NCBI RefSeq assembly: GCF_007004725.1
Contig: NZ_ML660160.1
Location: forward strand, 558,001-622,000
Direction of reading: 5' to 3'
Source of the DNA: Aliikangiella coralliicola
GTDB lineage: Bacteria > Pseudomonadota > Gammaproteobacteria > Enterobacterales > Kangiellaceae
Length of the DNA: 64,000 nucleotides
Shown here: positions 1 through 57,935 of the stretch, piece by piece
Numbering within the stretch: the stretch's first letter is position 1
How the letters are laid out: each line of letters opens with the position of its first letter
Made by a program: the position numbers and the translations under genes
The notes under the pieces: generated by a model
Told to the model about the DNA's origin: nothing
The model's input: the letters and a program-made list of their open reading frames with translations, nothing else
The model's database searches: none

Positions 1-265
1 GCCAGTTCTTTTTATAGGGAGAACCTATGTTAGGGTGTAATTCGTAGCCAGGCCAAATGTAAACTGTCAGGGTTTGATTACTAACCAGCTTAGCACCCAG
101 GACATGCCCATACTCATGAATCACAACAGACAAATAGATAAAAACAGGTATCGCAGAACAAGACGCGAAAAATCTTAAACTAAGCGGCTTTAATTTAAGT
201 GACTCTAATTTAAATGACTCTAATTTAAGTGATATAGCTGCTCTCCTGATGGAAAAAATTAACAA
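1..265 (-). CDS. Partial M50-like membrane metallopeptidase (5' end only)
   Basis: The minus-strand frame is open from a TAA at 266-268 to the left edge of the window, about 88 codons. It has no ATG; the TTG at 263-265 is one possible start. The translation shows a short basic, repetitive N-terminus (LKLES / FKLES / LKLK), a hydrophobic stretch, then VVIHEYGHVLGAKLV, a membrane-embedded HExxH zinc motif as in M50 (site-2 protease-like) peptidases, and then a loop with YIWPGYELHP. The C-terminal part and any second zinc ligand lie outside the window. The repetitive N-terminus comes from three 15-bp tandem repeats at 191-235. The unusual start leaves open that this is a degraded copy. Family assignment rests on the HExxH plus its hydrophobic setting only. 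Confidence 0.45.
   Translation of the reverse strand, partial: MLIFSIRRAAISLKLESFKLESLKLKPLSLRFFASCSAIPVFIYLSVVIHEYGHVLGAKLVSNQTLTVYIWPGYELHPNIGSPYKKNW
191..235. repeat. Three tandem 15-bp repeats
   Basis: TAATTTAAGTGACTC, TAATTTAAATGACTC and TAATTTAAGTGATAT follow one another without gaps. On the minus strand they are in frame with the partial M50-like gene and encode the pentapeptide repeats just before its first hydrophobic segment. This is one of about a dozen similar 13-16 bp tandem duplications in the window. Confidence 0.9.
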
Positions 266-366
266 TTAGGACTGTGTTTATAAAACTAAGTTCATGGTCA
301 TTTTTTCCAAATCGAGTTAAAGCTGCGCTATATCATCTTAAAATAAAACCGCAATTTGATAAGTGG

Positions 367-1545
367 CTAACGCCACCAAAATAAATCCCGTGCTGCATCA
401 ACTGAATCATCATTGTTTAGAGTAACAACCTGTCCCATTTTAGGGGTTAACAAATCAATCCAGTCTCGGTTTGCAATTTCGACCATTTGCTCAAAGGGAT
501 CTGTCCAACTATGAAAAGCCAGGTCAAATGTGCCATTGTGAATCGGTAATAGTTTTTTACCTTTTAAATCTTTGTGCGCTTGGGCAGATTCAGTTGGGCT
601 CATGTGAACCTCTGACCAATCTTTATCATAAGCGCCTGTTTCGAGCATCGTTAGATCGAATGGGCCGTATTGATTTCCTATTTCCTTGAACCCGTCAAAA
701 TAGCCGGTGTCACCGCTGAAAAATAAGTTGCTTGATTCCGATTTAATTACCCATGAACTCCATAAAGTTTTATTGCGGTCGCTGATTCCTCGGCCGGAAA
801 AGTGTTGTGCGGGTGTTGCAGTAATTTTGGTGCCTTCAATTTGAATTGATTGCCACCAATCTAGCTCGGTTACTTTATCTGGATTAATTCCCCAGTCGAT
901 CACTTGTGCAGAATTTCCAAGTGGCATGATAAAGTGCTTCACTTTATTAGCTAGTTGCTTGATGGAGTACTCGTCAAGATGGTCATAGTGATTGTGTGAA
1001 ATGATCACGCCATCAATTTCTGGAAGATCGTTAATGCTAATTGGCGGTTGATGAAATCGCTTAGGACCCATAAATGAAAATGGTGAAGCTCTCTCGGAAA
1101 ATACTGGATCGATCAACCAAAACTGTTTGTCTAATTTTAATAGAATGGTTGAATGACCTAATCGAATGATAGATGTTTTATCGCTGGGAAGTTGTTCAAG
1201 TTGCGTGTCAGAAATCGATTCTAAAGGAATCAATTTGTCGGGTGCCGTGTTTTGCTTTTTTTCGAATAAAGAACGCTTCACTATTCTGAACAGGCGACTA
1301 AAACTGAATTCGTCTACCATTTTTTGATTAGTGAATTTTCCTGCAGCGTTATACTGTGAGGAAGTTAAATAAGGGGCGTCATTTTCGACGGTTACTGCGT
1401 TAAGAGAAGAGATAGTCATGGCTATGGTGCCTCCAAGTAGCAATATAAATGTGGTGATTTTTCGACGTCTTATTAACAACCCTAACTGCTTAAAACTGCG
1501 CTTCTGGTTGCTTCCTTTGGTATTTTGTCTATCGGGTTTGCTCAT
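367..1545 (-). CDS. Membrane-anchored metallo-beta-lactamase-fold hydrolase (NAPE-PLD-like)
   Basis: 392 residues. A basic N-terminus is followed by one hydrophobic segment (about residues 31-50), then a metallo-beta-lactamase fold. The zinc motif HxHxDH is seen as HNHYDHLD (residues 184-191), with later ligand-type motifs PAQHFSGRG, FFSGDTGYFDG and LPIHNGTFDL. The pattern PVFSERASPFSFMGPKRF after the first strand is typical of the N-acylphosphatidylethanolamine phospholipase D-like/UlaG-like branch, so a lipid phosphodiesterase role at the membrane is possible. The substrate cannot be told from sequence. The gene is divergent from a TetR regulator, and a palindromic operator lies between the two starts, so TetR control is likely. 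The leader segment could act as a signal anchor with the catalytic domain in the periplasm. Confidence 0.85.
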   Translation of the reverse strand: MSKPDRQNTKGSNQKRSFKQLGLLIRRRKITTFILLLGGTIAMTISSLNAVTVENDAPYLTSSQYNAAGKFTNQKMVDEFSFSRLFRIVKRSLFEKKQNTAPDKLIPLESISDTQLEQLPSDKTSIIRLGHSTILLKLDKQFWLIDPVFSERASPFSFMGPKRFHQPPISINDLPEIDGVIISHNHYDHLDEYSIKQLANKVKHFIMPLGNSAQVIDWGINPDKVTELDWWQSIQIEGTKITATPAQHFSGRGISDRNKTLWSSWVIKSESSNLFFSGDTGYFDGFKEIGNQYGPFDLTMLETGAYDKDWSEVHMSPTESAQAHKDLKGKKLLPIHNGTFDLAFHSWTDPFEQMVEIANRDWIDLLTPKMGQVVTLNNDDSVDAARDLFWWR

Positions 1546-1562
1546 AAAATTACACTAGCTCA

Positions 1563-2275: not shown

Positions 2276-2386
2276 GGTTGACTCAACAAATAAGCATTTC
2301 TTTCTTTTAATAACTGCGTTATAAATAGCGGTTGATTTCATTTTTAAGTAATGGAATTAAGGCAAAGTGAGCATAGGGCTTAGTGT

Positions 2387-2412
2387 CATTGATTAATTTC
2401 ACTGATTAATTT
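2387..2412. repeat. Two tandem 13-bp repeats
   Basis: CATTGATTAATTT and CACTGATTAATTT, one mismatch, in the leader upstream of the small gene at 2482. Another example of the short tandem duplications seen across the window. Confidence 0.8.
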
Positions 2413-2867: not shown

Positions 2868-5800
2868 TCACTTTTTGTTGTTTAGAAAAGTGATTTTTTT
2901 ACGCCAGCTCGATTCGAATAACTTTTGAAATTCTGGTTCGTCTATCAGGCTTTGCTTTGGGTATCCCTGTAAAAGAGCCTTGTTTATCCAATCAATAGAG
3001 GTTTCGTATTGGCCGCACAGCGTAAAAATCTGGGCTGCCAATACCTTATGATAAGAATCGTTAATATTATCAATCAATTCCATTTCTCTTAAAGCTTCTT
3101 TTACTTTTCCCATTTTGGCTAGTAGCATTGCCTTGGTAATCTTGTACAGTCTTTTATTCGGTTGTTTAGACATTTTAAGCTTAAGAAGATTCAATGCCTT
3201 GTAATAGGCGCTATTTGCTGATTTTGCATCTTTTTTCCAGCGGTAAGAATCTCCCAGGTTGTGCCAAAATTTGTGGTTTTTTGGGTTTAAATTGACCGCT
3301 AGTAAAAAGTTTTTTATTGAGTCATCATAATTTTTTTGATAAAACTGAACTGTGCCTAAGTTAGAGTAGTTATTTCCTGTTGCTTCAATTTTAATTGCTT
3401 CCGTAAAAGTTTTTAGTGCATTTTTGTAGTCTCCGCGACTCATTTGTATAGCACCGTTAATTTGATAGGCAACATCATTGTTAGGCGTTAGCTTTTGTAA
3501 CATACTATAGGCGCTTTCAGCTTTATCAAGTTGATTTGTCCTGTAGTAGAATACTGCAAGGTAATTCCAAACTATCCAGTTTTCGTTTATTTCCAAGGAG
3601 CGTAGATAAGTTTGTTCTGCTTTGTCTAGTTCTCCGTTTCGTTTGTAAATTTTGGCCAAACCAAAGTAAGCGATCGCATTGTTACTATCCATTTTGATTG
3701 CCTTCTGATAGCTTTGCATCGCCTTATCAAATTCCGTCTTTGCATATAAAACATTCCCTAAAATGGAATGGCTTAACGAGTGTTGTGGTGCTAAATTAAT
3801 TGCTCGTTTTCCATAGATTTCGGCTTGCTCTAACCATTCTGCACCATTTCGTATTTTGGCGGCTCGAATATAGGCTCCCGCCAGTTCCCTTGTCGCTTCG
3901 AGGAAGCCTGTGTCTATTTCAACAGCTTTTTCAAAAGCCGAAATCGCCTTATCTAGGTTATCCTTATAATCATACCGATAAAGGTAAGCTAATCCTTCTA
4001 AATAGCTCTGATAAGCTTCTGACCCATTCGTTAATGGCTGGTTGAGTCTAGCTTGCAAAGTATTCGAAACCGACCAATCCAACAAATTCAAAATAGAATC
4101 TCGAATTTTAGATTGCCACTTAAACACTTCATTTACTGGAATATCATGTACGATTGAGTGCAGTAATTTTGAATCTTTTGCGTTGAGAATAGAAATATTT
4201 AAACGCCTGATGTTACCAAGATGCTGAATTGACCCGCTAAGAATCAGTTCAGGGTTGTATTTTTTATAAATTGCTTCAGCGCTGGTGTCTTTGAGTTTTC
4301 TTAGTTCTGTCGAGGGGATCACCCAGGTATCCTTATTTTCCTGACCCACTAAAGCAAGCTCATTACTCAGACTGATTGAAAGACCTCGTGAAAATACATC
4401 CAGTGCGGGATCTCCGCTGATATTATCGAAAGGTAAAATTGCAATGGTTTTTCCATTGAGTAAAATATTTTCCCGCGATATAGGAGTTGGTTCTCGTAAA
4501 ATTTGAGGGGTAGTGATAACCGCTACAGCGGCTAAGCTGGCCAATGGAATCAGACGCCAGGAAGTGAACCAATATCGCCATCCGCCGCGCGAGCGGCGAT
4601 TTTTTTCTTCTCGCTCAGCTTCCAGTAATGTCAATTCTATTTCTGCCATCGATTTTGGACGTTGCACAGGGTCTTTATTCAAGCATTGTTGAATAAGTCG
4701 CTCGATAACTTTTGGAATTTTATGTAGCGACTTTTCCTTTTTAGATTCTCCGTCGTTGGAGTTAGGACGAAACTCTGGCGTATGCGTTCGTATTGCTTCT
4801 AAGGTCAGTTCCGGTTGTTTTTTATAGAAAGGGTGATTACCGTAAAACATCTGGTATAAAATAATTCCAAACGCAAACACATCGCTACTAGTCGTTAATT
4901 TTCGTCCACGAGATTGTTCCGGCGACATATAACATAGCGTTCCACGCAATTCTGCTGCGGGACTGATTGTTTCACTGGTTGAAGTTTGATTGGTTCGATC
5001 TAAAGTTGAATCGCTATTTAACGACGCATTTTCAAGGTTCTGTTTTGTAGCGTTTGTTTGTTGCGAAAAAGACGATATTTCTGCAATGCCAAAATCAAGT
5101 ATCTTTACCCGCGGTTCACTGGCGCGAATCATGATGTTGGTTGGTTTGAGATCTCGATGAATAATTCCAGCTTTGTGTGCGCTAGCTAGCCCTGCTGCAA
5201 TCTGTCGAGCATACGACAGCTTTTGCTGTGAAGATAACTTGGTGAACTGGTTACCCTCTCCTTGACTTGAAACTAACGGAGCAAGAAAGCGATCGAGCGT
5301 TTTTCCCTCTATCCATTCCATCGCGATAAAACAGTTATCTTTGTTGCGTGCGACGTCATAAATCGTGACAACATTGGGGTGATTTAGCGCGGATGCTAAC
5401 CGAGCTTCATCTAACATGTTCTCTCTGATTTGCCGGGTAACGCGTTTATTACGAAATATTTTTAGCGCGATTAATCTGTTAAGTTGTGTATCTCTGGCTT
5501 TATAAACAATTCCCATCGCACCTTCGCCAACCTTTTTGACGATTTGAAATGGGTGGCCAGACTCCATTCCCGATTGGGTATTTGAACCATCATCCTTGTC
5601 TTCGCGTTTATGTGTAGCGGTCAGAACAAATGATTGTGGATTCGGCAGGGTGATGGAACCATCGCTATTGAGTTTTTCATCACTCAAATTTAATCGTGGT
5701 TTGGTGGTTAAGTCTGGTGTAAAACGGGTTTGAGTTTGGTCGATATCATCTCCATCGTCATACTGGGATGAAAAAGTATTCGATGGAGAAGTATTCGATG

Positions 5801-5909
5801 AAGAAGTACTTAAAGTCATCATCTGACCTTCTGCGATGAGTTCTTCTCCGCAACTATCACAAAAAAAGTTAAGCGGAGAGTTACTTTGCTGGCATTTTTT
5901 ACAATTCAT
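2868..5909 (-). CDS. Zinc-ribbon Ser/Thr protein kinase with TolB-like and TPR regions
   Basis: 1013 residues. Order: a zinc ribbon (C3, C6, C17, C20); a Ser/Thr-rich linker; a Hanks-type kinase (about 121-430) with glycine loop GEGAMGIVY, K150, HRDLKPTN (251-258), DFG (272-274) and MSPE (328-331); a membrane segment (about 452-470); a FlgO/TolB-like domain (KTIAILPFDNISGD, from about 487); then many TPRs to the C-terminus. All catalytic residues are present, so it should be active. The DFG-to-SPE span is long (about 55 residues) and Ser/Thr-rich, suggesting heavy autophosphorylation. The membrane segment places the TolB-like/TPR part outside the cytoplasm, as in PknB-like sensor kinases. It is the second gene of a tight operon behind an FHA-GAF-GGDEF protein, a likely phosphothreonine-reading partner. 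The substrate is unknown. Confidence 0.93.
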   Translation of the reverse strand: MNCKKCQQSNSPLNFFCDSCGEELIAEGQMMTLSTSSSNTSPSNTFSSQYDDGDDIDQTQTRFTPDLTTKPRLNLSDEKLNSDGSITLPNPQSFVLTATHKREDKDDGSNTQSGMESGHPFQIVKKVGEGAMGIVYKARDTQLNRLIALKIFRNKRVTRQIRENMLDEARLASALNHPNVVTIYDVARNKDNCFIAMEWIEGKTLDRFLAPLVSSQGEGNQFTKLSSQQKLSYARQIAAGLASAHKAGIIHRDLKPTNIMIRASEPRVKILDFGIAEISSFSQQTNATKQNLENASLNSDSTLDRTNQTSTSETISPAAELRGTLCYMSPEQSRGRKLTTSSDVFAFGIILYQMFYGNHPFYKKQPELTLEAIRTHTPEFRPNSNDGESKKEKSLHKIPKVIERLIQQCLNKDPVQRPKSMAEIELTLLEAEREEKNRRSRGGWRYWFTSWRLIPLASLAAVAVITTPQILREPTPISRENILLNGKTIAILPFDNISGDPALDVFSRGLSISLSNELALVGQENKDTWVIPSTELRKLKDTSAEAIYKKYNPELILSGSIQHLGNIRRLNISILNAKDSKLLHSIVHDIPVNEVFKWQSKIRDSILNLLDWSVSNTLQARLNQPLTNGSEAYQSYLEGLAYLYRYDYKDNLDKAISAFEKAVEIDTGFLEATRELAGAYIRAAKIRNGAEWLEQAEIYGKRAINLAPQHSLSHSILGNVLYAKTEFDKAMQSYQKAIKMDSNNAIAYFGLAKIYKRNGELDKAEQTYLRSLEINENWIVWNYLAVFYYRTNQLDKAESAYSMLQKLTPNNDVAYQINGAIQMSRGDYKNALKTFTEAIKIEATGNNYSNLGTVQFYQKNYDDSIKNFLLAVNLNPKNHKFWHNLGDSYRWKKDAKSANSAYYKALNLLKLKMSKQPNKRLYKITKAMLLAKMGKVKEALREMELIDNINDSYHKVLAAQIFTLCGQYETSIDWINKALLQGYPKQSLIDEPEFQKLFESSWRKKITFLNNKK
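5767..5811. repeat. Three tandem 15-bp repeats inside the kinase linker
   Basis: GATGAAAAAGTATTC, GATGGAGAAGTATTC and GATGAAGAAGTACTT run head to tail in frame. They encode the Ser/Thr/Asn-rich pentapeptide repeats (around residues 33-47) between the zinc ribbon and the kinase domain. Confidence 0.9.
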
Positions 5910-5933: not shown

Positions 5934-7511
5934 TTAGTCTGTTAAGGTGATATCTGGAATGTGAGTATTTAAAGACTCTAGCGATTTTTTGGTAGAGACG
6001 TGTACACGGTCACGTCCCGCACGCTTGGCGAGATACATGGCAGCATCTGCCTCTTCAATAAATCGGTAGGGCATGGTACCCAGTGAGGCCTCATATTCGA
6101 CGATACCAAAACTTGCGGTTACTGAAACACGAATACCATCATTTTGAATTTCTAAGTTCGCAATGTCTTTGCGCAAACGCTCGGCGTAGCGAAGCGCGCC
6201 TTCTTCGTTGGTTTCTGTTAGCAGGAAGATAAATTCTTCTCCGCCTAGTCGACCCACAACGTCGCTCTTTCGCGCTGTCATACTAAGCAAGTTGGCAACT
6301 TCTCTGAGCACCTGATCGCCGCAATTGTGGCCATAAGTGTCATTAATATTTTTAAAGTGATCAATGTCCAGCAAGATCAGACAACAGGTTGAAGCATATC
6401 GTCTGGATTGATCCATCGCTTGCTTAATTCGTTCTTCGAAAAATTTTCGTGTATATAAACCCGTTAAATCGTCGGTGATAGCCTGGCTGTAGTGCATCGC
6501 ACTTTTAAGTGCTGTGCCTAAGTGAATTTGCAGCGATTGTAAGAAAGGCTTTTGTTCTTCATTGAAACAGCTGGCTTTGGTTTGACTATCAAGATAAATA
6601 ACGCCGAGGGTCCGTTCGCCATAGCTCAGGGGTATGACAACTGCACTTTTGATGGAAAATTTATGGATACTAAATGCCTGGTTTAGTGAAATTTCGTTAC
6701 ATGTGTCTTCAATCAAAACGATTTCGTTTTCGTCGTAACAGCGCCTGGCAACGGTTTGACTATATAAATCATTGTTGTCCAGTGCTTGAGTTTCTTCATC
6801 AAATTGATAGTGATAAGTCGCTGAAGGAACTAATTTTCGATGTTGCTCATCAAATTTAAGTATGAATCCGCGATCAGCTTTTAACACATTGGCGATTGGT
6901 GGCAGGATCTGCGCGAGAAAATCCTGATAAATCGGTGTTTGGTTTAGCATCAAGTGAATATTGTGTATGACTGTATTCTGTTCTACCCATGAAGTGACCA
7001 ATTGTTCCGTTTTGTTAAAGGCCTTCTCGATGACTTTTTGCTGTTCGATGACTTGTTGCTGTTCTTCCGGGGAATAGTTATTCGTGGGCTGTTGATTGAG
7101 AATATTCAATGTTTGCTGCTTCAGCTCTTTTATCGAAGCGGGTAGGTTGGTTGCTGAAAACTCTTGAGTCAAGCGTCCCAGCCATTTTTCGGGTCGGACG
7201 ATTTCAAGCTTTATGGCTAGATTCCCCAGTCGAATTTCAACATCGGACTGGATCAGAATCGAGTTTTCGGGGCCGATAGCAATATGGTCGACGTAAGTCC
7301 CAAAACGCGAATTAAGGTCTTGAATTGAGATACCTTGAGGAGTTTGGGTGATTCTGGCGTGTTTGCGCGAAACGCTAGTGTCGGCAAAGATAACGTCATT
7401 TTCACGCCCACGCCCAATATAGATAGTCGACTCACCAAGCTCCACCACAGCAGAGACTTCTTTAGTGCCGTCTTTCCATTTCAGGTTGAGTTGAACCGAG
7501 TCGCTTAACAT
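5934..7511 (-). CDS. FHA-GAF-GGDEF diguanylate cyclase
   Basis: 525 residues, soluble. An FHA domain (about 28-100) shows the GR, S-x-x-H (SRKH, 48-51) and N-S-R-F-G-T landmarks that bind phosphothreonine. A linker with coiled-coil character (about 130-175) leads to a GAF domain (about 185-335) and a GGDEF domain (about 345-510). The catalytic motif is intact (GGEEF, 423-427), and an RxxD inhibitory site (RKSD, 414-417) sits at the usual distance, so c-di-GMP synthesis with product feedback is expected. It is the first gene of an operon with the Ser/Thr kinase (24 bp gap). The simplest reading is that FHA docks a phosphorylated threonine, on the kinase or one of its targets, and that this tunes c-di-GMP output. 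That link is inference from domains and gene order. Confidence 0.93.
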   Translation of the reverse strand: MLSDSVQLNLKWKDGTKEVSAVVELGESTIYIGRGRENDVIFADTSVSRKHARITQTPQGISIQDLNSRFGTYVDHIAIGPENSILIQSDVEIRLGNLAIKLEIVRPEKWLGRLTQEFSATNLPASIKELKQQTLNILNQQPTNNYSPEEQQQVIEQQKVIEKAFNKTEQLVTSWVEQNTVIHNIHLMLNQTPIYQDFLAQILPPIANVLKADRGFILKFDEQHRKLVPSATYHYQFDEETQALDNNDLYSQTVARRCYDENEIVLIEDTCNEISLNQAFSIHKFSIKSAVVIPLSYGERTLGVIYLDSQTKASCFNEEQKPFLQSLQIHLGTALKSAMHYSQAITDDLTGLYTRKFFEERIKQAMDQSRRYASTCCLILLDIDHFKNINDTYGHNCGDQVLREVANLLSMTARKSDVVGRLGGEEFIFLLTETNEEGALRYAERLRKDIANLEIQNDGIRVSVTASFGIVEYEASLGTMPYRFIEEADAAMYLAKRAGRDRVHVSTKKSLESLNTHIPDITLTD

Positions 7512-7794: not shown

Positions 7795-8823
7795 TCAATT
7801 TTTCCCACCACAAGATTCTCTAACTATCAGCTTCGCCGGTAACATAGTTGTCTCGACTTGCTTTTCATTAATTCTGTCCAACAAGGTCTCAACTAAAACT
7901 TCACCAGCTAATTTAGTATCTTGTTGAACGGTTGTGAGAGTAGGGCGGATGAATTCTGAGAGCGGAATATTATCGTAGCCGACCACTGCGATATCGGTCG
8001 GGATTTCCATGCCTCTTTCTCGCAAAGCTTTTACCACGCCAATTGCGATTAAGTCGCTGGCGCAAAAAACTGCGTCGAATGGTTGTTTAAGGGCAAGTAA
8101 TTGTAAAGCTGCTGCATATCCTGATTGTTCTGTAGTGATTGCTTCAATTTGTAGTTTTGCATTCACTTTCAATCCAGCTTTTTCGATTGCGTGACAGGAG
8201 CCGTTGTATCGATCAAAAAATTCAGGGCAGTGTTTGGAAGCACCACCAATAAAAGCAATATTTTTGCGGCCTGATTGAATTAAATGTTGAGTGACATCGA
8301 ATCCGCCCTGAAAATTATCGCAACCGATCGAAATTCCTGGTTGTCCTTCCTTCACCGCTCCCCAGCGAACAAAATGAGTCCCTTGTGACTCAAGTTGAAT
8401 CAGCTTCTCTTCGTAGTCAGTGTAATCACCATATCCAAGCAAAATAATGCCGTCTGCTTTGTGGCAATCTTCATAGTCAGCATGCCAATCGTCCTCAAGC
8501 TCTTGAAACGACACCAGGAGATCATAGCCTTTTTGTGTGCAAGCACGAGTGATGCTTCCAAGCATGGAGAGGAAAAACGGATTAATCTGAGAGTCGTCGC
8601 TGGTTGGATCCTGAAATAAGAGTAGCGCGATTGTACCGCTTTGTTGAGAGCGAAGATTGCTCGCATTTTTATCGACTTTGTAGTTGAGTTCTTTTGCAAT
8701 CGCGTGAATTCTTGCACGAGTCTCTTCATTGACCAGCGGGCTATTGCGTAAAGCTCGCGACACCGTTGACTGGGAGACCCCAGCATGGTGCGCGATGTCA
8801 AATGAAGTGGCTTTACCTTTCAA
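7795..8823 (-). CDS. LacI-family transcriptional regulator
   Basis: 342 residues. The N-terminal helix-turn-helix and hinge (SFDIAHHAGVSQSTVSRALR, then VNEETRARIHAIAKELNY) and a periplasmic-binding-protein-like effector domain (FFDRYNGSC, DAVFCASDLIAIGVVKALRERG, PLSEFIRPTLTTVQQD) are complete. It is divergent from glucokinase across a 382-bp region that holds a TGACACCGGTATCA half-palindrome also found before edd, so it is one of two candidate regulators of the local glucose genes. The effector is unknown; a sugar or a sugar phosphate is typical. Confidence 0.92.
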   Translation of the reverse strand: MKGKATSFDIAHHAGVSQSTVSRALRNSPLVNEETRARIHAIAKELNYKVDKNASNLRSQQSGTIALLLFQDPTSDDSQINPFFLSMLGSITRACTQKGYDLLVSFQELEDDWHADYEDCHKADGIILLGYGDYTDYEEKLIQLESQGTHFVRWGAVKEGQPGISIGCDNFQGGFDVTQHLIQSGRKNIAFIGGASKHCPEFFDRYNGSCHAIEKAGLKVNAKLQIEAITTEQSGYAAALQLLALKQPFDAVFCASDLIAIGVVKALRERGMEIPTDIAVVGYDNIPLSEFIRPTLTTVQQDTKLAGEVLVETLLDRINEKQVETTMLPAKLIVRESCGGKN

Positions 8824-8854
8824 ATGAAACTCCTGCTAAAAACCAATTGATAAA

Positions 8855-8901
8855 TTTTAAAGGCTGCTTATTTTAAAGATTACTTATTTTTAAAGGCCGG
8901 G
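8855..8901. repeat. Tandem 16-bp repeats upstream of the LacI-type gene
   Basis: TTTTAAAGGCTGCTTA, TTTTAAAGATTACTTA and a third partial copy TTTTTAAAGGCC, lying 30-80 bp upstream of the minus-strand regulator start. Confidence 0.8.
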
Positions 8902-8992
8902 TAAAAGCCGATTTGGGTAAAAATACTGTCAGCCAATATACTCTAACTGTGGTTTTGATAAAAGTAGGCTAGCCTGACTCACAATTAAAGTT

Positions 8993-9022
8993 TTGACAAA
9001 TCAATAATGACACCGGTATCAT
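8993..9022 (+). promoter_or_regulatory. Putative glk promoter with LacI-type operator
   Basis: TTGACA (8993-8998) and TATCAT (9017-9022) are separated by 18 bp. The near-palindrome TGACACCGGTATCA (9008-9021) covers the -10 element. It differs by one base from the perfect palindrome at 11549-11562 before edd. The central CCGG inside a short dyad is typical of LacI-family operators. The remainder of the 382-bp region between the divergent genes is AT-rich, with a further small dyad (ATCATGAT) just downstream. Confidence 0.65.
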
Positions 9023-9205
9023 AATTTATCATATCATGATTGGATTGCGTAATAAAAAAGCCAAATCATATTGTTTGTAGTAGTTTATGAGCCAGCGACT
9101 TTAAGTAGATGGTTTATTCACACGACTGTTACGGGTCTGCTCAACAAAATTTGAAGATATAGTCGAAAAAAATCGTTATTAGAATGATCATTGAGAATAT
9201 AACTT

Positions 9206-10198
9206 ATGCAACAATTAAATAATCATTGCCCTTATATTGTGGCGGATATTGGCGGTACTAACGCCCGATTTGGCCTGGTCACAACTTTTAATAAGGAAAA
9301 TCAACAGTTTACAGTTGAAAATCAGCAAACCTATCCCAGCGCTGAGTTCGATGGAGTAGAGCAGGCTGTGGCGTGTTACAGGGAAACATTAGATGAAAAA
9401 TCGATTGAAGGGGCATGTTTGGCGGTGGCTGGGCCGGTTGCGGGAGAACGCATTCGACTCACCAATCTGAATTGGGATATCTGCGTACCGTCCACCAGGC
9501 GAAAACTCGGTTTTTCGAATTTACAGATAATCAACGACTTTGCTGCATACGCGTACGCTATTCAATATCTTGAGCAAGGTCATTTGCGTACCATTAACCA
9601 GGGAAATGGTATCAAAGGGAGCCCTATCGCTGTGCTTGGCCCTGGTACCGGGTTTGGCGTCGCTGCTTTGGTGACTCAAAACCATCGGGTGAATGTGTTA
9701 GCGTCAGAAGGCGGACATATGTCATTGGCGGCAAACACCGCGCTTCAGGCGGCAATTAAGGAACAGCTTTCGCGAAAATATTCACTGGTTTCGGTAGAGC
9801 GCGTTTTTTCGGGGCCTGGGCTGCGTCATTTATATCATGCGTTAGCCGCGGTAGAGGGACGGACAGCCCGTCAGTTGTCGACTGCCGAAATCAGTCGGCA
9901 TGCATTGGCCGGCACCGATGAAATGTGTCAACGAACGCTTGCGTTATTTTGTTCCTGGCTCGGCGGTGTTACTGGCGACTTAGCGTTAGCGCTCGGTGCT
10001 CGCGGAGGCGTATTTCTTGGTGGCGGGATATTGCCGAGAATTGCAGATTTTCTTATCGACAGTGATTTTAAGCGAGCTTTCAGGGCAAAAGATCAAATGA
10101 GCCACTATCTGGAAGACATTCCTGTCCAGCTGGTTACTGAAGGCAACTCTGCGTTGTTAGGGGCTGCCGCCTGGTTCAGGAATTCATTTGAGCATTAA
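9206..10198 (+). CDS. glk: Glucokinase
   Basis: 330 residues, close to the E. coli Glk length. It phosphorylates glucose to glucose-6-phosphate with ATP in the cytoplasm. Sequence marks: the phosphate-binding loop VADIGGTNARFGLV at the N-terminus, NDFAAYAYA, GPGTGFGVA and SEGGHMSLA. It heads the plus-strand glucose locus; a regulator and the whole Entner-Doudoroff set follow. No PTS gene is seen nearby, so free glucose is probably imported by a non-PTS carrier encoded elsewhere. A LacI-type operator overlaps its likely promoter. Confidence 0.95.
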   Translation: MQQLNNHCPYIVADIGGTNARFGLVTTFNKENQQFTVENQQTYPSAEFDGVEQAVACYRETLDEKSIEGACLAVAGPVAGERIRLTNLNWDICVPSTRRKLGFSNLQIINDFAAYAYAIQYLEQGHLRTINQGNGIKGSPIAVLGPGTGFGVAALVTQNHRVNVLASEGGHMSLAANTALQAAIKEQLSRKYSLVSVERVFSGPGLRHLYHALAAVEGRTARQLSTAEISRHALAGTDEMCQRTLALFCSWLGGVTGDLALALGARGGVFLGGGILPRIADFLIDSDFKRAFRAKDQMSHYLEDIPVQLVTEGNSALLGAAAWFRNSFEH

Positions 10199-11438: not shown

Positions 11439-11456
11439 TTGTCTACTAAAATCAGA

Positions 11457-11495
11457 TCTACTAATTCACTTTACTAATCCGTTTCATTAATCCCT
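11457..11495. repeat. Degenerate 13-bp tandem repeats before edd
   Basis: TCTACTAATTCAC, TTTACTAATCCGT and TTCATTAATCCCT, between the regulator stop codon and the edd promoter. Confidence 0.6.
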
Positions 11496-19682: not shown

Positions 19683-20648
19683 ATGGAACTTTCAAATGAG
19701 CAGTTATTCATAAACAACCAGTTTGTCCGTGACTTGGCGTGGATATTTCAGTCGACGCCCTTGATAAGCTCTGAACACATGAGTTTCGAAAAGGACTTCT
19801 CCGATGATGCGTGGCTGAAAGAGCTGGATAGCAATCCTGAGATGCTGGAAGCGCATTTAAAAAATAAAAACCTGAGAATGCTAGGACCATACTTTGAAGG
19901 CTTGTGGGAGTTTTATCTCCGCTTTTATCCAGGTAAAAAATTGTTGGCAAAAAATGTTCAGGTTTTTGGCGATAATAAGACCCTTGGCGAATTTGATTTT
20001 ATTTATTTTGACGAATTGACGCAACAGTACCGACACCTTGAAGTTGCAATAAAATACTATCTGGGCTCCACGGGTATGACTGAAACCGACTCTCATGAAA
20101 GCGACTCTTATGAAACCAGCTCTCATGATACAACTTCAATGAGTACCTGGATTGGACCTAATACGAACGACAGATTGGATAGGAAATTTAATAAGCTAGT
20201 AATGCATCAATCGAAACTCTCGCAAACGGCGGCGGGGCGCGAAGCATTACTAAAGCTAGGTGTTAAAGACATTAAAAGCGAAATCTGCTTACTTGGATAC
20301 CTGTTTTATCCTGAACATTATCCTCTCGACTCGCCATTAAATTCGCAAGCTAATCATCATCGAGGACGCTGGTTGAGAATCAGTGATTTAGCCAGTTTTG
20401 TCCACCGATCAGACTATTGGTCGGTGCTAGAGAAACCACATTGGCTAGCGCCAATCGTAAGAGAATCGTCGGCTCTTTTATCCAGTAAGGAGGTTGTTGA
20501 AAGGCTGACGTTGTTGATTGAAGATAAACAGCACCCTATATTAATTTCTGGCTTTTCCGGATCAGAGGCATTTGCACCGTGCTATGCTAGTGAACAACTG
20601 GTTTTTGTTGTTCCCGATAACTGGCCGAATAAATCGAGCTCGGGATAG
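19683..20648 (+). CDS. DUF1853 family protein
   Basis: 321 residues from the ATG at 19683. It has the DUF1853 pattern: FVRDLAWIFQSTPLI at the N-terminus, LRMLGPYFEGLWEFYLRFYP, KTLGEFDFIYFDE, LEVAIKYYLG and DRLDRKFNKLVMHQ. The conserved acidic and lysine residues (EFDFI ... LEVAIKYY) resemble a PD-(D/E)xK nuclease-like core, which is a suggestion only. No biochemical role is established as far as I know. The family's usual loop after the LEVAIKYYLG strand is enlarged here by a Ser/Thr/Asp/His-rich insert made of three 15-bp repeats. Confidence 0.85.
   Translation: MELSNEQLFINNQFVRDLAWIFQSTPLISSEHMSFEKDFSDDAWLKELDSNPEMLEAHLKNKNLRMLGPYFEGLWEFYLRFYPGKKLLAKNVQVFGDNKTLGEFDFIYFDELTQQYRHLEVAIKYYLGSTGMTETDSHESDSYETSSHDTTSMSTWIGPNTNDRLDRKFNKLVMHQSKLSQTAAGREALLKLGVKDIKSEICLLGYLFYPEHYPLDSPLNSQANHHRGRWLRISDLASFVHRSDYWSVLEKPHWLAPIVRESSALLSSKEVVERLTLLIEDKQHPILISGFSGSEAFAPCYASEQLVFVVPDNWPNKSSSG
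20088..20132. repeat. Three tandem 15-bp repeats inside the DUF1853 gene
   Basis: GACTCTCATGAAAGC, GACTCTTATGAAACC and AGCTCTCATGATACA encode DSHES, DSYET and SSHDT in a loop after the conserved LEVAIKYYLG segment. In-frame units keep the protein readable. Confidence 0.9.
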
Positions 20649-20696: not shown

Positions 20697-23600
20697 TTAG
20701 CTTTTGTCGGCAATCAAACTGTCGCTGAAAATAAACTCACGAAAATTATTTTCGCTCATTGGTTTCCCGAGGTAATAGCCCTGACCAAAATCACAATGGT
20801 TGTTAACCAAAAAGTTGAGTTGTTGCTGAGTTTCTATTCCTTCAGCGACAACTTTAATTTTTAAGCGTTTGGCCATGACTAATATTGTTTCAATAAGTGT
20901 CTCGGCCGAACTTTCCTTTTCTATTTTTTCGACAAATTCCCGATCTATTTTGATAATGTCGACGGGAAACTTTACCAGGTAGCTAAGCGATGAATAACCG
21001 GTGCCAAAATCATCGATTGCAATTTTTACATTATAAGTTTTTAGTTTTTCTAATACACTGAGTGCTTTTTCCGAATCATCGGTTAACAGTCTTTCTGTGA
21101 TTTCTACTGTAATATTTATTTTCTGGCTGAGGGTCTTGATGCATTCCATCCAGGTTTCAAGCGCTTTATCTCGCGTATGGAATAATCTCGGGGACACGTT
21201 AATTGAAAGTCCGACATTTCTACCTTTCTGATTGATTTTTATAAGCGCCTGTACCGCGTTTTCAAGCATCAAAAGATCGATCTTGTTAATGAGTCCAGAT
21301 TCTTCCGCAAGACTGATAAATTCAACTGGAGGGATAAATTGCCCATCGGCTTTTTGCCATCTTGCCAGCGCTTCACATTTGGTTACCCGGTTAGTTTTTA
21401 AATCGAGAATTGGCTGATAATAGGTTGCCAATTTTCTATTTTTTACTGCGATGATTAAGTGGTTAAGAAGGGCATGCCGATACTCTGAATTTTGTTGCAT
21501 CTCGCGCGTATAAAATTGCCAGCCATTTCTACCACTGCCTTTTACCGTGTACATAGCCTGGTCTGCTTTCCTCAGCAGACTCTGTGCATTCTCTCCGTCA
21601 TCAGGATATAGCGCGATACCGATACTCGCGCTGCAATGTAAAACAATCTCATCGAAGTGGTAAGCTTGTTGCATATTTTCCAGAATAATTTCGGTAATTT
21701 TTAGTGCTGTATTGTAGTGAGGAACATTGGCGATAATCACGCCGAATTCGTCACCGCTCAATCTGGAAACTGTATCCGATTCTCGAACGCAACTCTGAAT
21801 TCGTTTAGCTGACTCAATCAAAAGTCTGTCACCGATTTGGTGGCCATGATTGTCATTAACGGGTTTAAACCGGTCCAGGTCGATAAAAAGAACCGCAATT
21901 TTATTTTTGTTTCGGCGAGCACTATCAATCGCTTTGTTAAGTCTATCATTAAATAATATTCGGTTAGGCAGGTCTGTTAAAGAATCGTAAGTTGCCTGGT
22001 GTTCTATTAATTTTGCGCTAAGCACTTTGTCAGTAACATCTTGGAGTGTACCTGTGACAAAAGTTTGCTCGTTCTCTCTCGACGAACTCGCGATAATTCT
22101 TAGCCAGCTTTTTTGATCGTCCTTGGAGTTCAGTTCTAACTCAATATCGAACGGACTACCGGTTTTTATAGCCAAATCTATATTCGACTTCCACACAAGT
22201 AAGCCATCTTTTTCAAAAAGCTCAGCGATTTCATTGATATTTTCAGGCTTATATTGCGCGGGCTTTTTTAATAAAAGTGAAGACTGTTGTGACCATTGAG
22301 CAAAGTTGAGTTGCTCGTCAACTTTCCAGCCACCAATTCTGGCAACGCTTCCCACTTTTTCGAGTAGTTTCTGATTGTTTCTGATTAATGTTTCTAATTT
22401 TTGTTTTTCTCGCTCCTGTTTAAACCTGAATGAAGTAAATGAACAGATAATAAGAACGATTATCAGTGAGGCTAGCCTGACGAAAAGAATGTTGGTTGAG
22501 AAGTTTTCGTTGTGGCCTATTGGAGAGGCGGCCAGATGCCAGGTGCCGCCGCCAACGCTGATAATGAACTGGACTCTCTCAGGATCTTCAAATACACGCT
22601 TTTCACCGAAGAAAACAGGGCCTTCTCTACCTAGCGAATCATAACTTTTTATGGCCAGTTTGGTTTCTTTTGCGAGAGTTCTGACGTCTGAGTGTTGGTA
22701 TAGTGATTCTGCATCAAGTGGTGCTGAAATAATGCCCCATAATCGCCTGTCAGAACCGTCCCCGGTGTAAATCGGCGCTCTACCGATAAAAGCGACCCCG
22801 CCCTGGACCAGGTTGACTGGCCCTGCAACTAATAGTTGTCCGCTATTGGCAACTTGCATGACCATTTCTCTTTGTGCGTCATTTTTTCGGTAGTCTAAAC
22901 CGATAGCTTTTTCATTATTTTTCAGTGGATAAACATAATTGACGACAAGGTCTTTAGCTGCCGCAAAATTAATGAGCATGGGTTCTTTCTTAAAAATTTC
23001 GCTCGCATAGTTTGCGTATTCGTCATAAGTCAGGTCTGGCGTGGCCGAAATATAAGCGGCAAAACCGCTCAACATAGACAAATTGGTTTGAAGGTTTCCT
23101 TCTAACTTAGCGCTAACGGAACTCAATTGCTGCAGCAGGTTGAGTTTTACCGCCTGGGCATCATCTTTTTCAAGATTGGCCTCAAGTTCTAATTCAATGA
23201 TGAGTGTTATAGCCAGAATACCGGTAATCGTTAATAACAGATATCGCTTGTACCAGAATATAAAAATGGCGGGAGTGAGCGCAACAAGTGCCAGGATAAA
23301 AATAATTTTATCCAGATAATTATCTGCTTTTGTTTCTGTACTAAAGAAAAAGCTTGATTTGTCCAGATGAGATCGCACTAAACCAAGGGACCGTATTCTT
23401 TCATTCATGGTAAACCAGCGGTCCTGATTAATATAACCAATCGGTTTTTGAGGGTATTGAATTAAGTTATCAATCAGGTCGGAGAATGCCAGATTATAAT
23501 CAAGGACATTGTCATATTGATAGATATAACGAGGTAACTGGGTGGAAATTTGTTGCGCGATTTGTTGCTTGTTGTTGAGTGCGTACAACCAGCCTTGTTG

Positions 23601-27953: not shown

Positions 27954-28318
27954 AGTGGGATTTTCCAGTTGAAATATTGTCCAGTTAGAATATTGTCCAA
28001 TTAATATAATTCTAAAGTATTGGAAATCGAATACAATTCGATAGTTTACATCAAAATATTAGTCCATGTATCACGGCAATTAGTAAAACTGTGAACCGAG
28101 CGACTCTATTAGGTTTAGTTCATTCCTGAATTTAGACTAAATAAACACTAGTTATAAAAATAGCTGAATATAGCGAAATTGCGTATAAGTTAACAATTTA
28201 CAAGTATCTCATTCTGGTAATATCCTATTCTTATTTGTACGATAGTCTTTAAACACGCTTTGGATTAAGCGTACTTTTATTTTGCCGCTGGATAGAAAAA
28301 CATTAACCAGGAACGCAG
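27954..28318. repeat. Intergenic region with 16-bp tandem repeats
   Basis: 365 bp between divergent genes. CCAGTTGAAATATTGT (27965-27980) and CCAGTTAGAATATTGT (27981-27996) are followed by a partial third copy CCAATTAATATAATTC, right upstream of the fimL start. The rest is AT-rich and shows no gene. Confidence 0.8.
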
Positions 28319-35436: not shown

Positions 35437-35460
35437 GATTTGCTCCAAAAACAGGTTAGA

Positions 35461-35520
35461 TAGTTGTCTGAAAATACGTTGTTTGAAAACTAGTTGTTCG
35501 AGAATAAGTTGTTTGAATAT
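35461..35520. repeat. Four diverged tandem repeats in the ilvC leader
   Basis: TAGTTGTCTGAAAATA, CGTTGTTTGAAAAC, TAGTTGTTCGAGAATA and AGTTGTTTGAATAT follow one another, alternating 16 and 14 bp, so the array is also a 30-bp unit present twice. It lies in the probable 5' leader of ilvC, 25-84 bp upstream of its start codon. Confidence 0.85.
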
Positions 35521-37236: not shown

Positions 37237-37350
37237 GAAATATTTCAGACACCCTTTTAAGATTTTATGTAATTTCTGGTTGGTTGGTATAAATCTATTG
37301 TTTTGCCAATAGTTAACCGGTTCCGTCGTAGAATTACGTATTGATTTCAG

Positions 37351-37665
37351 TTACATATTAACTTCAATTGCATAAATTCTGCACTCAGCATCGTCAGAAT
37401 TTGTATAAACAGTGACCTGTTTGTTAGCGATTGCTGCAGATAAAGCCGTTGCATAAACTCGGTGGCGTTCTTCAGAAGTTGTTCCTTTAAACCTTAACCA
37501 GCCATAGTTACCTGCATTACACTTTTCAGGAGAAATAGCATTGGTCATTTGAATCGCTGGATCTACGCTGCCAGATACTTTTTGAATTTTTCCCGAGACA
37601 TAGTGTGGTCCCGCGATAGCTGAGGCGCTGATAAAGAAGCTTATTGCCACCATTAATTTTTTCAT
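37351..37665 (-). CDS. Small periplasmic protein of unknown function
   Basis: 104 residues. A clear signal peptide (MKKLMVAISFFISASAIAG, cleavage near residue 19) is followed by a short domain with two cysteines about 46 residues apart (CNAGNYGWLRFKG ... AECRIYAIEVNM), suited to one disulfide. The YVSGKIQKVSG start and beta-strand-like ending suggest a small beta barrel. I do not recognise a named family. AAGGGA lies upstream of the ATG. Monocistronic. Confidence 0.75.
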   Translation of the reverse strand: MKKLMVAISFFISASAIAGPHYVSGKIQKVSGSVDPAIQMTNAISPEKCNAGNYGWLRFKGTTSEERHRVYATALSAAIANKQVTVYTNSDDAECRIYAIEVNM

Positions 37666-41305: not shown

Positions 41306-41357
41306 GGCGTGTTGCCGTCCCTGCGTTCGGCTGGTTGTTTATGTTGATTCAGCTTTA

Positions 41358-41387
41358 GGCAGACCAGCTATGGGCAGACCAACTATG
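41358..41387. repeat. Two tandem 15-bp repeats
   Basis: GGCAGACCAGCTATG and GGCAGACCAACTATG, one mismatch, between the convergent fusion gene and the chemoreceptor gene. Confidence 0.85.
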
Positions 41388-49241: not shown

Positions 49242-49382
49242 GTTTGTCATACCTTGACAGTGAATCCGCTTCTCTTAAGATCTTCGCCTGACCTTAAATC
49301 CATTGATATTCCATTGGGTTTAAATATACCGATAGTTAAATCGATAGTCGAACAAAATAGTTGATCAAAAATAAGAGCGCTT

Positions 49383-54257: not shown

Positions 54258-54296
54258 GTGGTTAATCTCTATGGTTAAAATCTATGGTTAAAATCG
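54258..54296. repeat. Three tandem 13-bp repeats at the start of the cvfB-like gene
   Basis: GTGGTTAATCTCT, ATGGTTAAAATCT and ATGGTTAAAATCG. The third copy holds the ATG of the gene. Copies one and two open six-codon frames (MVNLYG and MVKIYG followed by TAA) that end inside the next copy, because 13 is not a multiple of three. Confidence 0.85.
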
Positions 54297-55126: not shown

Positions 55127-55175
55127 GTAGTAAAAAGTAGTAAGCAGTAAAAAGCAGTAAGAACAAGTAAAAAAG
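55127..55175. repeat. Short A/G-rich tandem repeat after the cvfB-like gene
   Basis: GTAGTAAAAA, GTAGTAAGCA, GTAAAAAGCA and GTAAGAACAA occur in series with a 10-bp period, directly after the stop codon. There is no hairpin and no coding frame. Confidence 0.65.
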
Positions 55176-55278
55176 AAAATCTCTAAGTTTCTTTGAATAC
55201 CGAATACAGCGGGCTTTTCATGTGAAAGCGCTGTTTAATTTTAATTGGTTTCATACGATATTTTATGAGGAATTACTG

Positions 55279-55836
55279 ATGACAAGAGCACTGATGACAA
55301 GATCACTGATGAAAAAATCACTGACTCAAGCTTTATTTTTTTGTACTTTTCTTTTCGCTAGTCAATTTTCTCAAGCTGAAATCATTGCGGCTAACGAAAA
55401 CTATTTTGAAGTAAAGTTTTCATCGACGGTTAAGGCGCCCGTCGAGAAATTAAATTCGACCCTGGTTGATATTGCCAAGTGGTGGAATCCTGAACACTCC
55501 TACGCTGGAAAAAGCGAAAACCTCACTCTCGACTTAACAAAACTGCATTGTTTTTGTGAAAAGTTTGACGGCGGCGGCTTTGTTCGTCACATGGATATTG
55601 GTTATTTTCAACCGGAAAAAATGCTTCGATTACTCGGTGGATTAGGTCCGTTGCAGTCTCTTCCTGTTGACGGAGTATTAGATTTTTCAATAAAAAGTCA
55701 GTCCGCAGAATCTTCGCTGCTAACTGTTACTTATAAAGTTAGCGGTGTCGGGGTTGGTTTAAAAAACTGGGCTAAACCCGTGCATGGTGTGATTGGCGAA
55801 CAGTTTTCCAGGCTGAAACAACAGGCAGAAAAATGA
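55279..55836 (+). CDS. Exported SRPBCC/START-like protein with repeated N-terminus
   Basis: 185 residues from the ATG at 55279, with GAGGA seven bases upstream. The N-terminal region is MTRAL-MTRSL-MKKSL, three 15-bp tandem repeats, each with its own in-frame ATG, followed by a signal-peptide core (ALFFCTFLFASQFSQA). The mature part (FEVKFSSTVKAPVEKLNSTL, IAKWWNPEHSYAGKSENLTL, LLTVTYKVSGVGVGL) has the SRPBCC lipid-binding fold. The ligand is unknown. It overlaps the amidohydrolase start (ATGA, 55833-55836), so the two exported proteins are co-translated. Confidence 0.8.
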   Translation: MTRALMTRSLMKKSLTQALFFCTFLFASQFSQAEIIAANENYFEVKFSSTVKAPVEKLNSTLVDIAKWWNPEHSYAGKSENLTLDLTKLHCFCEKFDGGGFVRHMDIGYFQPEKMLRLLGGLGPLQSLPVDGVLDFSIKSQSAESSLLTVTYKVSGVGVGLKNWAKPVHGVIGEQFSRLKQQAEK

Positions 55837-57452: not shown

Positions 57453-57807
57453 GCCGGGTAAGACAGGGTTAAAAAGAATTTTTGATGCAACGGGCTATTC
57501 TATCAAAGGTCTTGAAGCTGCCTGGAAAAACGAGGCAGCTTTTCGTCAGGAAGTTATGTTGGCTGCGGTGGGTATTCCGCTGGCGTTTTGGTTGGCAGAA
57601 ACCAAGTATGATTTATTGTGGTTAATTTTACCTCTATTTTTAGTGGTTGCCGCGGAGTTAACAAACTCTGCGATTGAAGCCGCGGTTGATCGAATTAGCG
57701 ATGAACATCACGAACTTTCAGGTCGGGCCAAAGATATTGGTTCGGCTTTAGTGTTTGTTTGCCTATTGTTATTAGCCGTTGTTTGGAGTGTTATTTTGCT
57801 CCGTTAG
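57445..57807 (+). CDS. dgkA: Diacylglycerol kinase
   Basis: 120 residues, the size of E. coli DgkA. An inner-membrane enzyme that recycles diacylglycerol to phosphatidic acid. Marks: RIFDATGYSIKGLEAAWKNE, AAFRQEV, ELTNSAIEAAVDRI and HELSGRAKDIGSALV, with three membrane helices. AAGGAA precedes the ATG, which lies inside the last codons of the amidohydrolase gene. Confidence 0.94.
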   Translation: MAKPGKTGLKRIFDATGYSIKGLEAAWKNEAAFRQEVMLAAVGIPLAFWLAETKYDLLWLILPLFLVVAAELTNSAIEAAVDRISDEHHELSGRAKDIGSALVFVCLLLLAVVWSVILLR

Positions 57808-57890
57808 AGCAAGACGATAGATAGCAAAGAGATTTAAATATGGCTTAATCAATGTAAATATGAGCCATTGTTAAAATCAACAAAGTTGTT

Positions 57891-57935
57891 TATTTTAATC
57901 ATCTGTATTTTAATAGTTTGTATATTAATAATTAA
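57891..57935. repeat. Three tandem 15-bp repeats before the M16 peptidase gene
   Basis: TATTTTAATCATCTG, TATTTTAATAGTTTG and TATATTAATAATTAA follow each other in the AT-rich upstream region, ending 58 bp before the start codon. TATATT/TATTTT units could serve as -10 elements. Confidence 0.8.

What the first reader, a model, noticed from the sequence alone, without database searches (positions are those of the whole stretch)
191..57935. A dozen unrelated loci carry 2-4 diverged tandem copies of a 13-16 bp unit
Read directly: 191-235 (3x15), 2387-2412 (2x13), 5767-5811 (3x15), 8855-8901 (about 3x16), 11457-11495 (3x13), 20088-20132 (3x15), 27965-28012 (about 3x16), 35461-35520 (4x14-16), 41358-41387 (2x15), 54258-54296 (3x13), 55279-55323 (3x15), 57891-57935 (3x15). 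The unit sequence differs at every locus, so this is not a dispersed repeat family but a process that duplicates short stretches in place. All units inside proteins are 15 bp and in frame, while 13- and 16-bp units lie outside or at gene starts. Slippage or a repair habit of this lineage that makes about 15-bp duplications is the inference.
Basis: partly seen in the sequence, partly recalled or inferred. Interest (0 to 1): 0.72.

Follow-up and report, generated by a model that had tools for sequence, protein, structure and literature searches.

The report
Genome-wide ~15-base tandem duplications
This bacterium's chromosome is sprinkled, mostly between genes, with short stretches of about 11 to 18 bases copied two to five times in a row; they look like leftovers of ordinary copying accidents that happened unusually often in this lineage, not like functional elements.

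Summary
All 12 loci are in the sequence; Tandem Repeats Finder lists 11 of 12 and a lag scan finds the twelfth. Window arrays of period 13-16 number 13, against a mean of 1.1 in 200 shuffles.

They are not peculiar to the window. In 1.198 Mb sampled elsewhere from this 7.04-Mb genome (family probably Kangiellaceae) there are 70 arrays of period 11-18 (58/Mb), Poisson-spread; the window, with 12, is on the high tail.

They look like true duplications diverged by point mutation: 57% of differences between copies are transitions, against 32.5% in chance pairs. They concentrate between genes (48 of 80 wholly), are about equally dense in divergent and convergent gaps, and were not found at the same places in relatives. 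Recognisable young pairs are 11-18 bp. This genome exceeds its sister species, other families of its order, E. coli and 80 named loci, but not significantly the rest of its family.

Best reading: a neutral short-duplication process, elevated here, then slippage and decay. No Ku match was found. The founding mechanism is unresolved; interest modest.

The parts
191..232 (.). 15-bp unit x 2.8, near the beginning of a minus-strand ORF that enters from the left edge; may be coding
   Evidence: TRF score 77; ORF read across the window edge
2386..2412 (.). 13-bp unit x 2.1, intergenic
   Evidence: TRF score 47, lag scan
5767..5808 (.). 15-bp unit x 2.8, in frame near the N terminus of the Ser/Thr kinase-TPR gene (2868-5909, minus)
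   Evidence: TRF score 70, Pfam, translation
7027..7064 (.).
   Evidence: TRF score 69, Pfam, translation
8854..8897 (.). 16-bp unit x 2.7, upstream of a LacI-family gene
   Evidence: TRF score 58, Pfam
11457..11495 (.). 13-bp unit x 3, diverged, just after a LacI-family gene
   Evidence: read out, lag scan at 11459; not in the TRF list
20081..20128 (.). 15-bp unit x 3.2, in frame in the DUF1853 gene (19680-20648)
   Evidence: TRF score 68, Pfam, translation
22374..22406 (.). 13-bp unit x 2.5 inside the GGDEF-EAL gene; weak, may be chance
   Evidence: TRF score 45; shuffles give a mean of 0.49 arrays of period 11-18 with score >= 45 per window
27960..28008 (.). 16-bp unit x 3.1, just upstream of a minus-strand ORF (26277-27953)
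   Evidence: TRF score 63
35460..35517 (.). 15-bp unit x 3.9 between ilvC and a divergent LysR-family gene; the gap is 52-63 bases shorter in four of five same-genus relatives, the fifth (G006) having a longer, unlike gap
   Evidence: TRF scores 68 and 86, Pfam, flank alignments, alignment of the interval, no array in the five relatives
37332..37374 (.).
   Evidence: TRF score 51
41350..41387 (.). 15-bp unit x 2.5 in a convergent gap
   Evidence: TRF score 55, context
49344..49370 (.).
   Evidence: TRF score 40, lag scan, Pfam
54259..54295 (.). 13-bp unit x 2.8 spanning the start codon of an S1/CvfB-like gene; the upstream ATGs are out of frame
   Evidence: TRF score 60, Pfam, alignment to G001 and G002
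55129..55161 (.).
   Evidence: TRF score 59, alignment
55275..55324 (.). 15-bp unit x 3.3 at a gene start; makes three in-frame ATGs before a signal-peptide-like sequence
   Evidence: TRF score 79, translation, alignment to G001
57891..57932 (.). 15-bp unit x 2.8 upstream of an M16 peptidase gene; G001 has a different 15-bp array in the same gap
   Evidence: TRF score 56

Best explanation
The arrays are accumulated neutral scars of a genome-wide process that makes short tandem duplications of about 11-18 bp, mostly needing little or no pre-existing sequence identity at the ends. Most stay at two copies; about a third (35 of 93 rows have 2.5 copies or more after rounding) were later extended, presumably by slippage between the copies. 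The copies then diverge by ordinary point mutation. They survive mainly between genes, and inside genes nearly only when the unit is a multiple of three. SHOWN: the excess over chance, the limited size range of young pairs, the intergenic preference, transition-rich divergence, absence from the relatives' intervals examined, and a rate above several other groups. INFERRED: neutrality, the later slippage and the founding step. The founding step I think most likely, weakly (about 25-30%), is a replication or repair accident at a nick or Okazaki-fragment end, where a short displaced strand is kept instead of trimmed, duplicating its own length.
For: Excess: 13 versus mean 1.09. Genome-wide and Poisson-spread: 70 arrays in 60 stretches outside the window, dispersion p = 0.555. 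Size: intergenic excess at lags 11-18 (55 against 3.4), none at 6-10, 1 place at 19-40; perfect pairs of 8-10 bp 5 against 5.6 expected, of 11-17 bp 16 against 0.2; at one stringency the excess per lag peaks at 15-16 and fades by about lag 50. Duplicates: 142 of 249 differences are transitions, chance 32.5%, p = 3e-15 (neighbouring copies of one array are not independent, and one array was counted twice). Little end homology: 54 of 93 rows extend at most 2 bases beyond one unit. Frame: 14 of 16 arrays inside ORFs have a unit divisible by three. Not regulatory: 425, 376 and 549 arrays/Mb in co-directional, divergent and convergent gaps. Not conserved: 0 of 17 window arrays spanned by an alignment; intervals without them. 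Rate, pairs of 13-18 bp with at most 2 mismatches per intergenic Mb: own without window 358 (60 pairs), G001 91 (3), other families of the order 72 (4), E. coli 73 (2), named loci 158 (28).
Against: The rest of the family is not significantly lower: G004 227/Mb, G005 143/Mb, five other Kangiellaceae 256/Mb. The size limit is less sharp for old pairs: at 19-30 bp, 7 pairs with 0-3 mismatches (0.1 expected), 11 with 4 (1.3) and 18 with 5 (4.0). Perfect copies are too few for steady production: 8, 22 and 38 pairs of 13-18 bp with 0, 1 and 2 mismatches (8 against 22, p = 0.016), so the process may have slowed, or copies may be born with differences. 39 of 93 rows extend 3 or more bases beyond one unit, so end homology or later expansion matters for many. 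MutS and the PolA 5' nuclease domain match in 21 of 21 genomes, so no simple repair defect was found. Lack of a spanning alignment is weak evidence, since intergenic DNA of these relatives hardly aligns at all. Control samples are small (E. coli 27.5 kb intergenic).
Confidence: 0.72

Rival explanations
1. Classical replication slippage between short direct repeats already present, at an ordinary bacterial rate, with nothing special about this genome.
For: The same size class is above shuffles in the other groups tested, some on very small counts. 39 of 93 rows extend 3 or more bases beyond one unit. The rest of the family is not significantly lower.
Against: 54 of 93 rows show at most 2 bases of extension, which by my own estimate (not simulated) is what little or no homology plus later expansion of some arrays would give. 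Rate is above G001 (p = 0.010), other families of the order (p = 0.0002), E. coli (p = 0.010) and named loci (p = 0.0002), uncorrected.
Confidence: 0.3
2. Each array is a set of binding sites for a regulator (for instance in the gap between ilvC and the LysR-family gene, or beside the LacI-family genes), kept by selection.
For: Several arrays lie upstream of genes; the 35460 array sits between ilvC and a divergent LysR-family gene.
Against: Convergent gaps hold arrays at no lower density than divergent ones (11 in 20.1 kb against 17 in 45.2 kb); five relatives have no array in the ilvC gap; some arrays lie in proteins; units are not shared more than by chance.
Confidence: 0.06
3. A past burst: a temporary mutator or repair-deficient phase made many duplications, and production has since slowed. 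(This can hold together with the best explanation.)
For: Pairs with 0, 1 and 2 mismatches number 8, 22 and 38 (4.4 of the 38 expected by chance), rising instead of flat or falling; 8 against 22, p = 0.016.
Against: Small numbers; some perfect pairs exist; the repair genes looked for are present now.
Confidence: 0.25
4. Scars of Ku-dependent end joining, or target-site duplications left by a Cas1-like integrase or transposon.
For: Little end homology and a limited size range would fit filled-in staggered breaks.
Against: No Ku match in 21 of 21 genomes while B. subtilis in the control set matched; no Cas1 match in the own genome, though 4 of 21 have one; in the 12 loci read out the copies are adjacent; no clear end motif.
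Confidence: 0.04
5. Chance similarity or assembly artefact.
For: Individual weak arrays such as 22374-22406 may be chance.
Against: Excess over 200 shuffles; copies differ from each other, and by transitions above all, which neither chance nor misassembled reads would be expected to give.
Confidence: 0.02

Closest known systems
Bacterial minisatellites / VNTR loci (general knowledge, recalled)
   Same: Tandem head-to-tail units longer than 9 bp, few copies, often intergenic, unit different at every locus.
   Different: Copy-number polymorphism between strains, the defining VNTR trait, could not be tested; most arrays here have about two diverged copies, so they are probably stable.
Short tandem repeats (microsatellites, units 1-9 bp) as surveyed in PMC12699852 (passages seen)
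   Same: Tandem duplication; expansion by slippage.
   Different: Units of 11-18 bp lie beyond that survey's 1-9 bp range; in this genome lags 6-10 show no excess.
Short tandem duplications from flap-processing defects (yeast rad27, E. coli polA; recalled, not looked up)
   Same: Duplications of a few to tens of bases.
   Different: As I recall them, those cases have short direct repeats at the ends; most rows here show little; the PolA 5' nuclease domain is present.

Membership tests
Minisatellite / tandem repeat locus | Head-to-tail copies of a unit of 10 bp or more, beyond chance | tested here: met
VNTR | Copy number varies between strains of one species | not testable with these tools
   The genome collection holds one genome per species
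Dispersed repeat family (REP/BIME-like) | Common unit at many loci | tested here: not met
   Of 92 arrays, pairs sharing a 10-mer: 15 against a mean of 32 in shuffled arrays; sharing an 11-mer: 8 against 10. Shuffling removes the repetition and so gives more distinct words, which raises the control
Regulator-binding repeat arrays | Preference for promoter-bearing gaps | tested here: not met
   Divergent 376/Mb (17 arrays), co-directional 425/Mb (37), convergent 549/Mb (11), with 2 at stretch edges and 1 of 68 unassigned
Regulator-binding repeat arrays | Conserved at orthologous sites | tested here: not met
   0 of 17 window arrays spanned; for 12 of the 17 some relative's locus aligned on both sides of the array; no array in the ilvC gap of 5 relatives
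Ku-dependent end-joining scars | Ku present | tested here: not met
   0 of 21 genomes; B. subtilis in the control set positive
Cas1/casposon target-site duplications or CRISPR | Cas1 present, or inserts between copies | tested here: not met
   No Cas1 match in the own genome; copies directly adjacent in the 12 loci read out
Homology-driven slippage duplications | Direct repeat of several bases at the duplication ends | tested here: inconclusive
   54 of 93 rows extend at most 2 bases, 39 extend 3 or more; later expansion confounds the latter

The most novel reading that the evidence does not exclude
This lineage has, or recently had, a distinct mutator activity that inserts a fresh copy of 11-18 bp beside itself without needing end homology, with a lower size limit near 11 bp and a steep fall above 18 bp, set by a physical step such as the length of displaced strand that escapes trimming. 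A second, stand-alone match to the flap-nuclease domain, seen in 6 of 8 other genomes of the order, was found in none of 13 Kangiellaceae, which would make trimming the suspect.
Probability: 0.13. Interest if true: 0.55.

Novelty: new member of a known kind. Interest (0 to 1): 0.3.

Why it matters
Units of 11-18 bp fall between microsatellites and large duplications; the one survey of which I read passages stops at 9 bp (PMC12699852). A genome with about one readable duplication per 2.6 kb of intergenic DNA (68 pairs in 176 kb, 4.6 of them expected by chance) gives enough events to measure the size, end homology and ageing of bacterial short tandem duplications, and it shows how such events create extra start codons (54259, 55275) and amino-acid repeats. 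If ordinary, it still warns against reading diverged repeats in promoters as regulator sites.

Tried and rejected
Dispersed family: not supported. End motif at the duplication borders: only a weak A/T preference that the definition of the border itself favours. Ku and Cas1: rejected. ATP-dependent ligase: one match in 14 of 21 genomes, own and sister alike, not informative. MutS loss: rejected, 21 of 21 match. PolA 5' nuclease loss: rejected, 21 of 21 match. A local hot region: rejected as the main account, since arrays are Poisson-spread outside the window; the window itself (12 against about 3.7 expected from 58/Mb) is high, but it came to me because of its arrays. The first lag scan showed about one place at nearly every long lag in the named set, in shuffles too, apparently a run of N; N was masked in the later scans. 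Rfam and tRNA searches of the window: nothing. Paper searches (for the guessed genus): in the titles and abstract openings listed I saw nothing that describes this size class in bacteria; two searches listed 20 of 23 and 20 of 40 papers. Passages of PMC12699852 and PMC3411829 were seen; the second is about much larger Salmonella rearrangements, with junction microhomology cut-offs of 8-12 bp. Rows dropped: L133 left out of the G001 intergenic rate because it overlaps L189 and L190; G002 stretches L198-L200 and the short protein-match loci were fetched but not used in rates; G003, G006, G007, G014-G016 and G019 were not sampled by place. The G001, G008, G011 and G012 stretches are the neighbourhood of the window's relatives, not a random sample, and the 80 named loci all surround one peptidase gene; at least two of those 80 are Kangiellaceae by title (L034, L042), and L034 lies on the contig also sampled as G012. 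One array appears twice among the 93 rows (92 distinct). Gene calls were crude longest ORFs, not annotation.
Full report
WHERE. The window is G000:C1:558001-622000 of a 7.04-Mb, 22-contig genome. Its family is very probably Kangiellaceae: contig C146 of same-family genome G012, which holds the M16 peptidase, has the same number, length and an overlapping match place as a contig titled 'uncultured Kangiellaceae bacterium'. No tool named the genus; Aliikangiella is a guess from recall.

OBSERVATION. All 12 loci read as described. Shuffling in 1-kb blocks (200 times) gives a mean of 1.09 arrays of period 13-16 per window against 13 seen, and 0.02 against 10 at score >= 55.

GENOME-WIDE. In 60 stretches outside the window (1.198 Mb) there are 70 arrays of period 11-18 with score >= 50, 58 per Mb, spread as expected for a Poisson process (dispersion p = 0.555); three 20-kb pieces of the window have 4, 3 and 5. 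On the first two batches (798 kb) the density was 50 and 63 per Mb, against 21 per Mb in 80 named loci, 11 in G001, 35 in G004, 36 in G005, 29 in G010, 33 in G009, and 17, 8, 10 and 33 in G017, G020, G013 and G018 of other families of the order; shuffles gave 0-3.3 per Mb, except 16.7 for the small G018 sample.

WHERE THEY LIE. In 862 kb, 80 arrays of period 11-18 with score >= 45: 48 wholly between ORFs, 16 overlapping an ORF border, 16 wholly inside, although ORFs cover 87% of the bases. Of the 16 inside, 14 have a unit of 12, 15 or 18 bp; of the 48 outside, 13 do (crude ORFs).

SIZE. In 121.5 kb of intergenic DNA near-perfect pairs exceed shuffles at lags 11-18 (55 against 3.4, adding the listed lags), not at 6-10, and one place is seen at lags 19-40. 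In the enlarged sample (176 kb) perfect pairs of 8-10 bp number 5 against 5.6 expected, perfect pairs of 11-17 bp 16 against 0.2, one of the 16 being a 7-bp repeat read at lag 14. With one fixed stringency the excess per lag is 8.7 at 13-14, 11.8 at 15-16, 6.9 at 17-18, about 2 at 19-30, 1 at 31-40, 0.4 at 41-50 and near zero beyond. Lags 26-36 include second-order matches of three-copy arrays. Two reservations: the mode at 15-16 is partly a detection effect, because 11-12 bp pairs with two mismatches are swamped by chance (55 against 32), and older pairs of 19-30 bp do exist (7 with 0-3 mismatches against 0.1, 11 with 4 against 1.3, 18 with 5 against 4.0).

TRUE DUPLICATIONS. Among 93 array rows in intergenic DNA 142 of 249 differences between adjacent copies are transitions; pairs alike by chance in shuffles have 32.5% transitions, p = 3e-15. 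Differences within one multi-copy array are not independent and one array was counted twice, but the bias is large. So the copies very probably descend from one another and diverged by ordinary point mutation.

ENDS AND COPIES. 54 of 93 rows match at most 2 bases beyond one unit, 39 match 3 or more; rounded copy numbers are 2.0 (58), 2.5 (17), 3.0 (11), 3.5 (4) and 4.5 (3). I read this as founding events with little end homology followed by expansion of some arrays; the longer extensions could also be end homology. No clear border motif was seen.

AGE. Pairs of 13-18 bp with 0, 1 and 2 mismatches number 8, 22 and 38, with 0, 0.2 and 4.4 expected by chance. By my reasoning, with steady birth and stepwise mutation the classes should be level or falling, and loss of perfect pairs by reversal cannot make the one-mismatch class larger than the perfect one. 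8 against 22 has p = 0.016. Either production has slowed or copies are sometimes born different. The numbers are small.

NOT FUNCTIONAL ELEMENTS. Arrays per Mb are 425 in co-directional, 376 in divergent and 549 in convergent gaps (37, 17 and 11 arrays). None of 17 window arrays is spanned by a blastn alignment to the relatives' loci held; for 12 of the 17 some locus aligned on both sides. This is weak by itself, since intergenic DNA hardly aligns. In the gap between ilvC and the LysR-family gene four of five same-genus relatives are 52-63 bases shorter (array 58 bases), and none of the five has an array; the fifth, G006, has a longer, unlike gap. Of the 18 relative intervals examined for six places, two hold an array of their own with another unit (15 bp in G001 upstream of the M16 gene, 16 bp in G005 beside glk). 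Arrays share no more 9-11-mers with each other than shuffled arrays do (the control is raised because shuffling removes the repetition). Two arrays fall on gene starts: the 13-bp array at 54259 adds out-of-frame ATGs, and the 15-bp array at 55275 gives three in-frame ATGs.

COMPARISON. Pairs of 13-18 bp with at most 2 mismatches, per intergenic Mb: own without window 358 (60 pairs in 167.6 kb), window 935 (8 in 8.6 kb, p = 0.017 against the rest), G001 91 (3 in 33.0 kb, p = 0.010), G004 227 (5 in 22.1 kb, p = 0.44), G005 143 (2 in 14.0 kb, p = 0.24), five other Kangiellaceae 256 (12 in 46.8 kb, p = 0.32), four genomes of other families of the order 72 (4 in 55.4 kb, p = 0.0002), E. coli 73 (2 in 27.5 kb, p = 0.010), 80 named loci 158 (28 in 177.5 kb, p = 0.0002). 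The eight p values are not corrected, and the samples are not all random (see Tried and rejected). So the process seems common among bacteria, elevated here, and perhaps in the family.

MACHINERY. Ku has no match in 21 of 21 genomes, with a positive control; Cas1 has none in the own genome and one in 4 of 21; MutS and the PolA 5' nuclease domain match in 21 of 21. A second match to the 5' nuclease domain occurs in 6 of 8 genomes of other families but in none of 13 Kangiellaceae, two of which are only 73% and 82% complete. It is a lead only: G001 also lacks it and has few arrays.

VERDICT. A real, genome-wide excess of short tandem duplications of limited size, best explained as neutral scars of a duplication process running faster here than in several other bacteria. 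The founding step is not established.

Noticed in passing
window 7795-19366: A sugar-catabolism cluster: two LacI-family genes, glucokinase, Entner-Doudoroff-type dehydratase, glucose-6-phosphate dehydrogenase and a glyceraldehyde-3-phosphate dehydrogenase (Pfam).
   Followed up: no
window 55222-55836: A 15-bp array repeats the start region so that three in-frame ATGs precede a signal-peptide-like sequence; the real start is probably the third.
   Followed up: partly
window 54259-54295: A 13-bp array duplicates the start codon out of frame, giving upstream ATGs before an S1/CvfB-like gene.
   Followed up: partly
window 1-265 and L113 (left of the window): The minus-strand ORF across the left edge contains an HEYGH stretch, which looks like a metalloprotease motif (recalled; no family search was made), close to the 15-bp array at 191-232.
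   Followed up: no
L109:11459-11583: Two 16-bp arrays with different units lie 4 bases apart (5.4 and 2.3 copies) in a gap of over 1 kb.
   Followed up: no
L240:11454: A perfect 7-bp tandem repeat (TTCCTAA), unlike the 11-18 bp class.
   Followed up: no
G000-G020: All 13 Kangiellaceae genomes have one match to the PolA-type 5' nuclease domain; 6 of 8 genomes of other families of the order have two.
   Followed up: partly
G000-G020: A match to an ATP-dependent DNA ligase domain occurs once in 14 of 21 genomes (13 over the cut-off), none in G003, G007, G010 and G013-G016.
   Followed up: no
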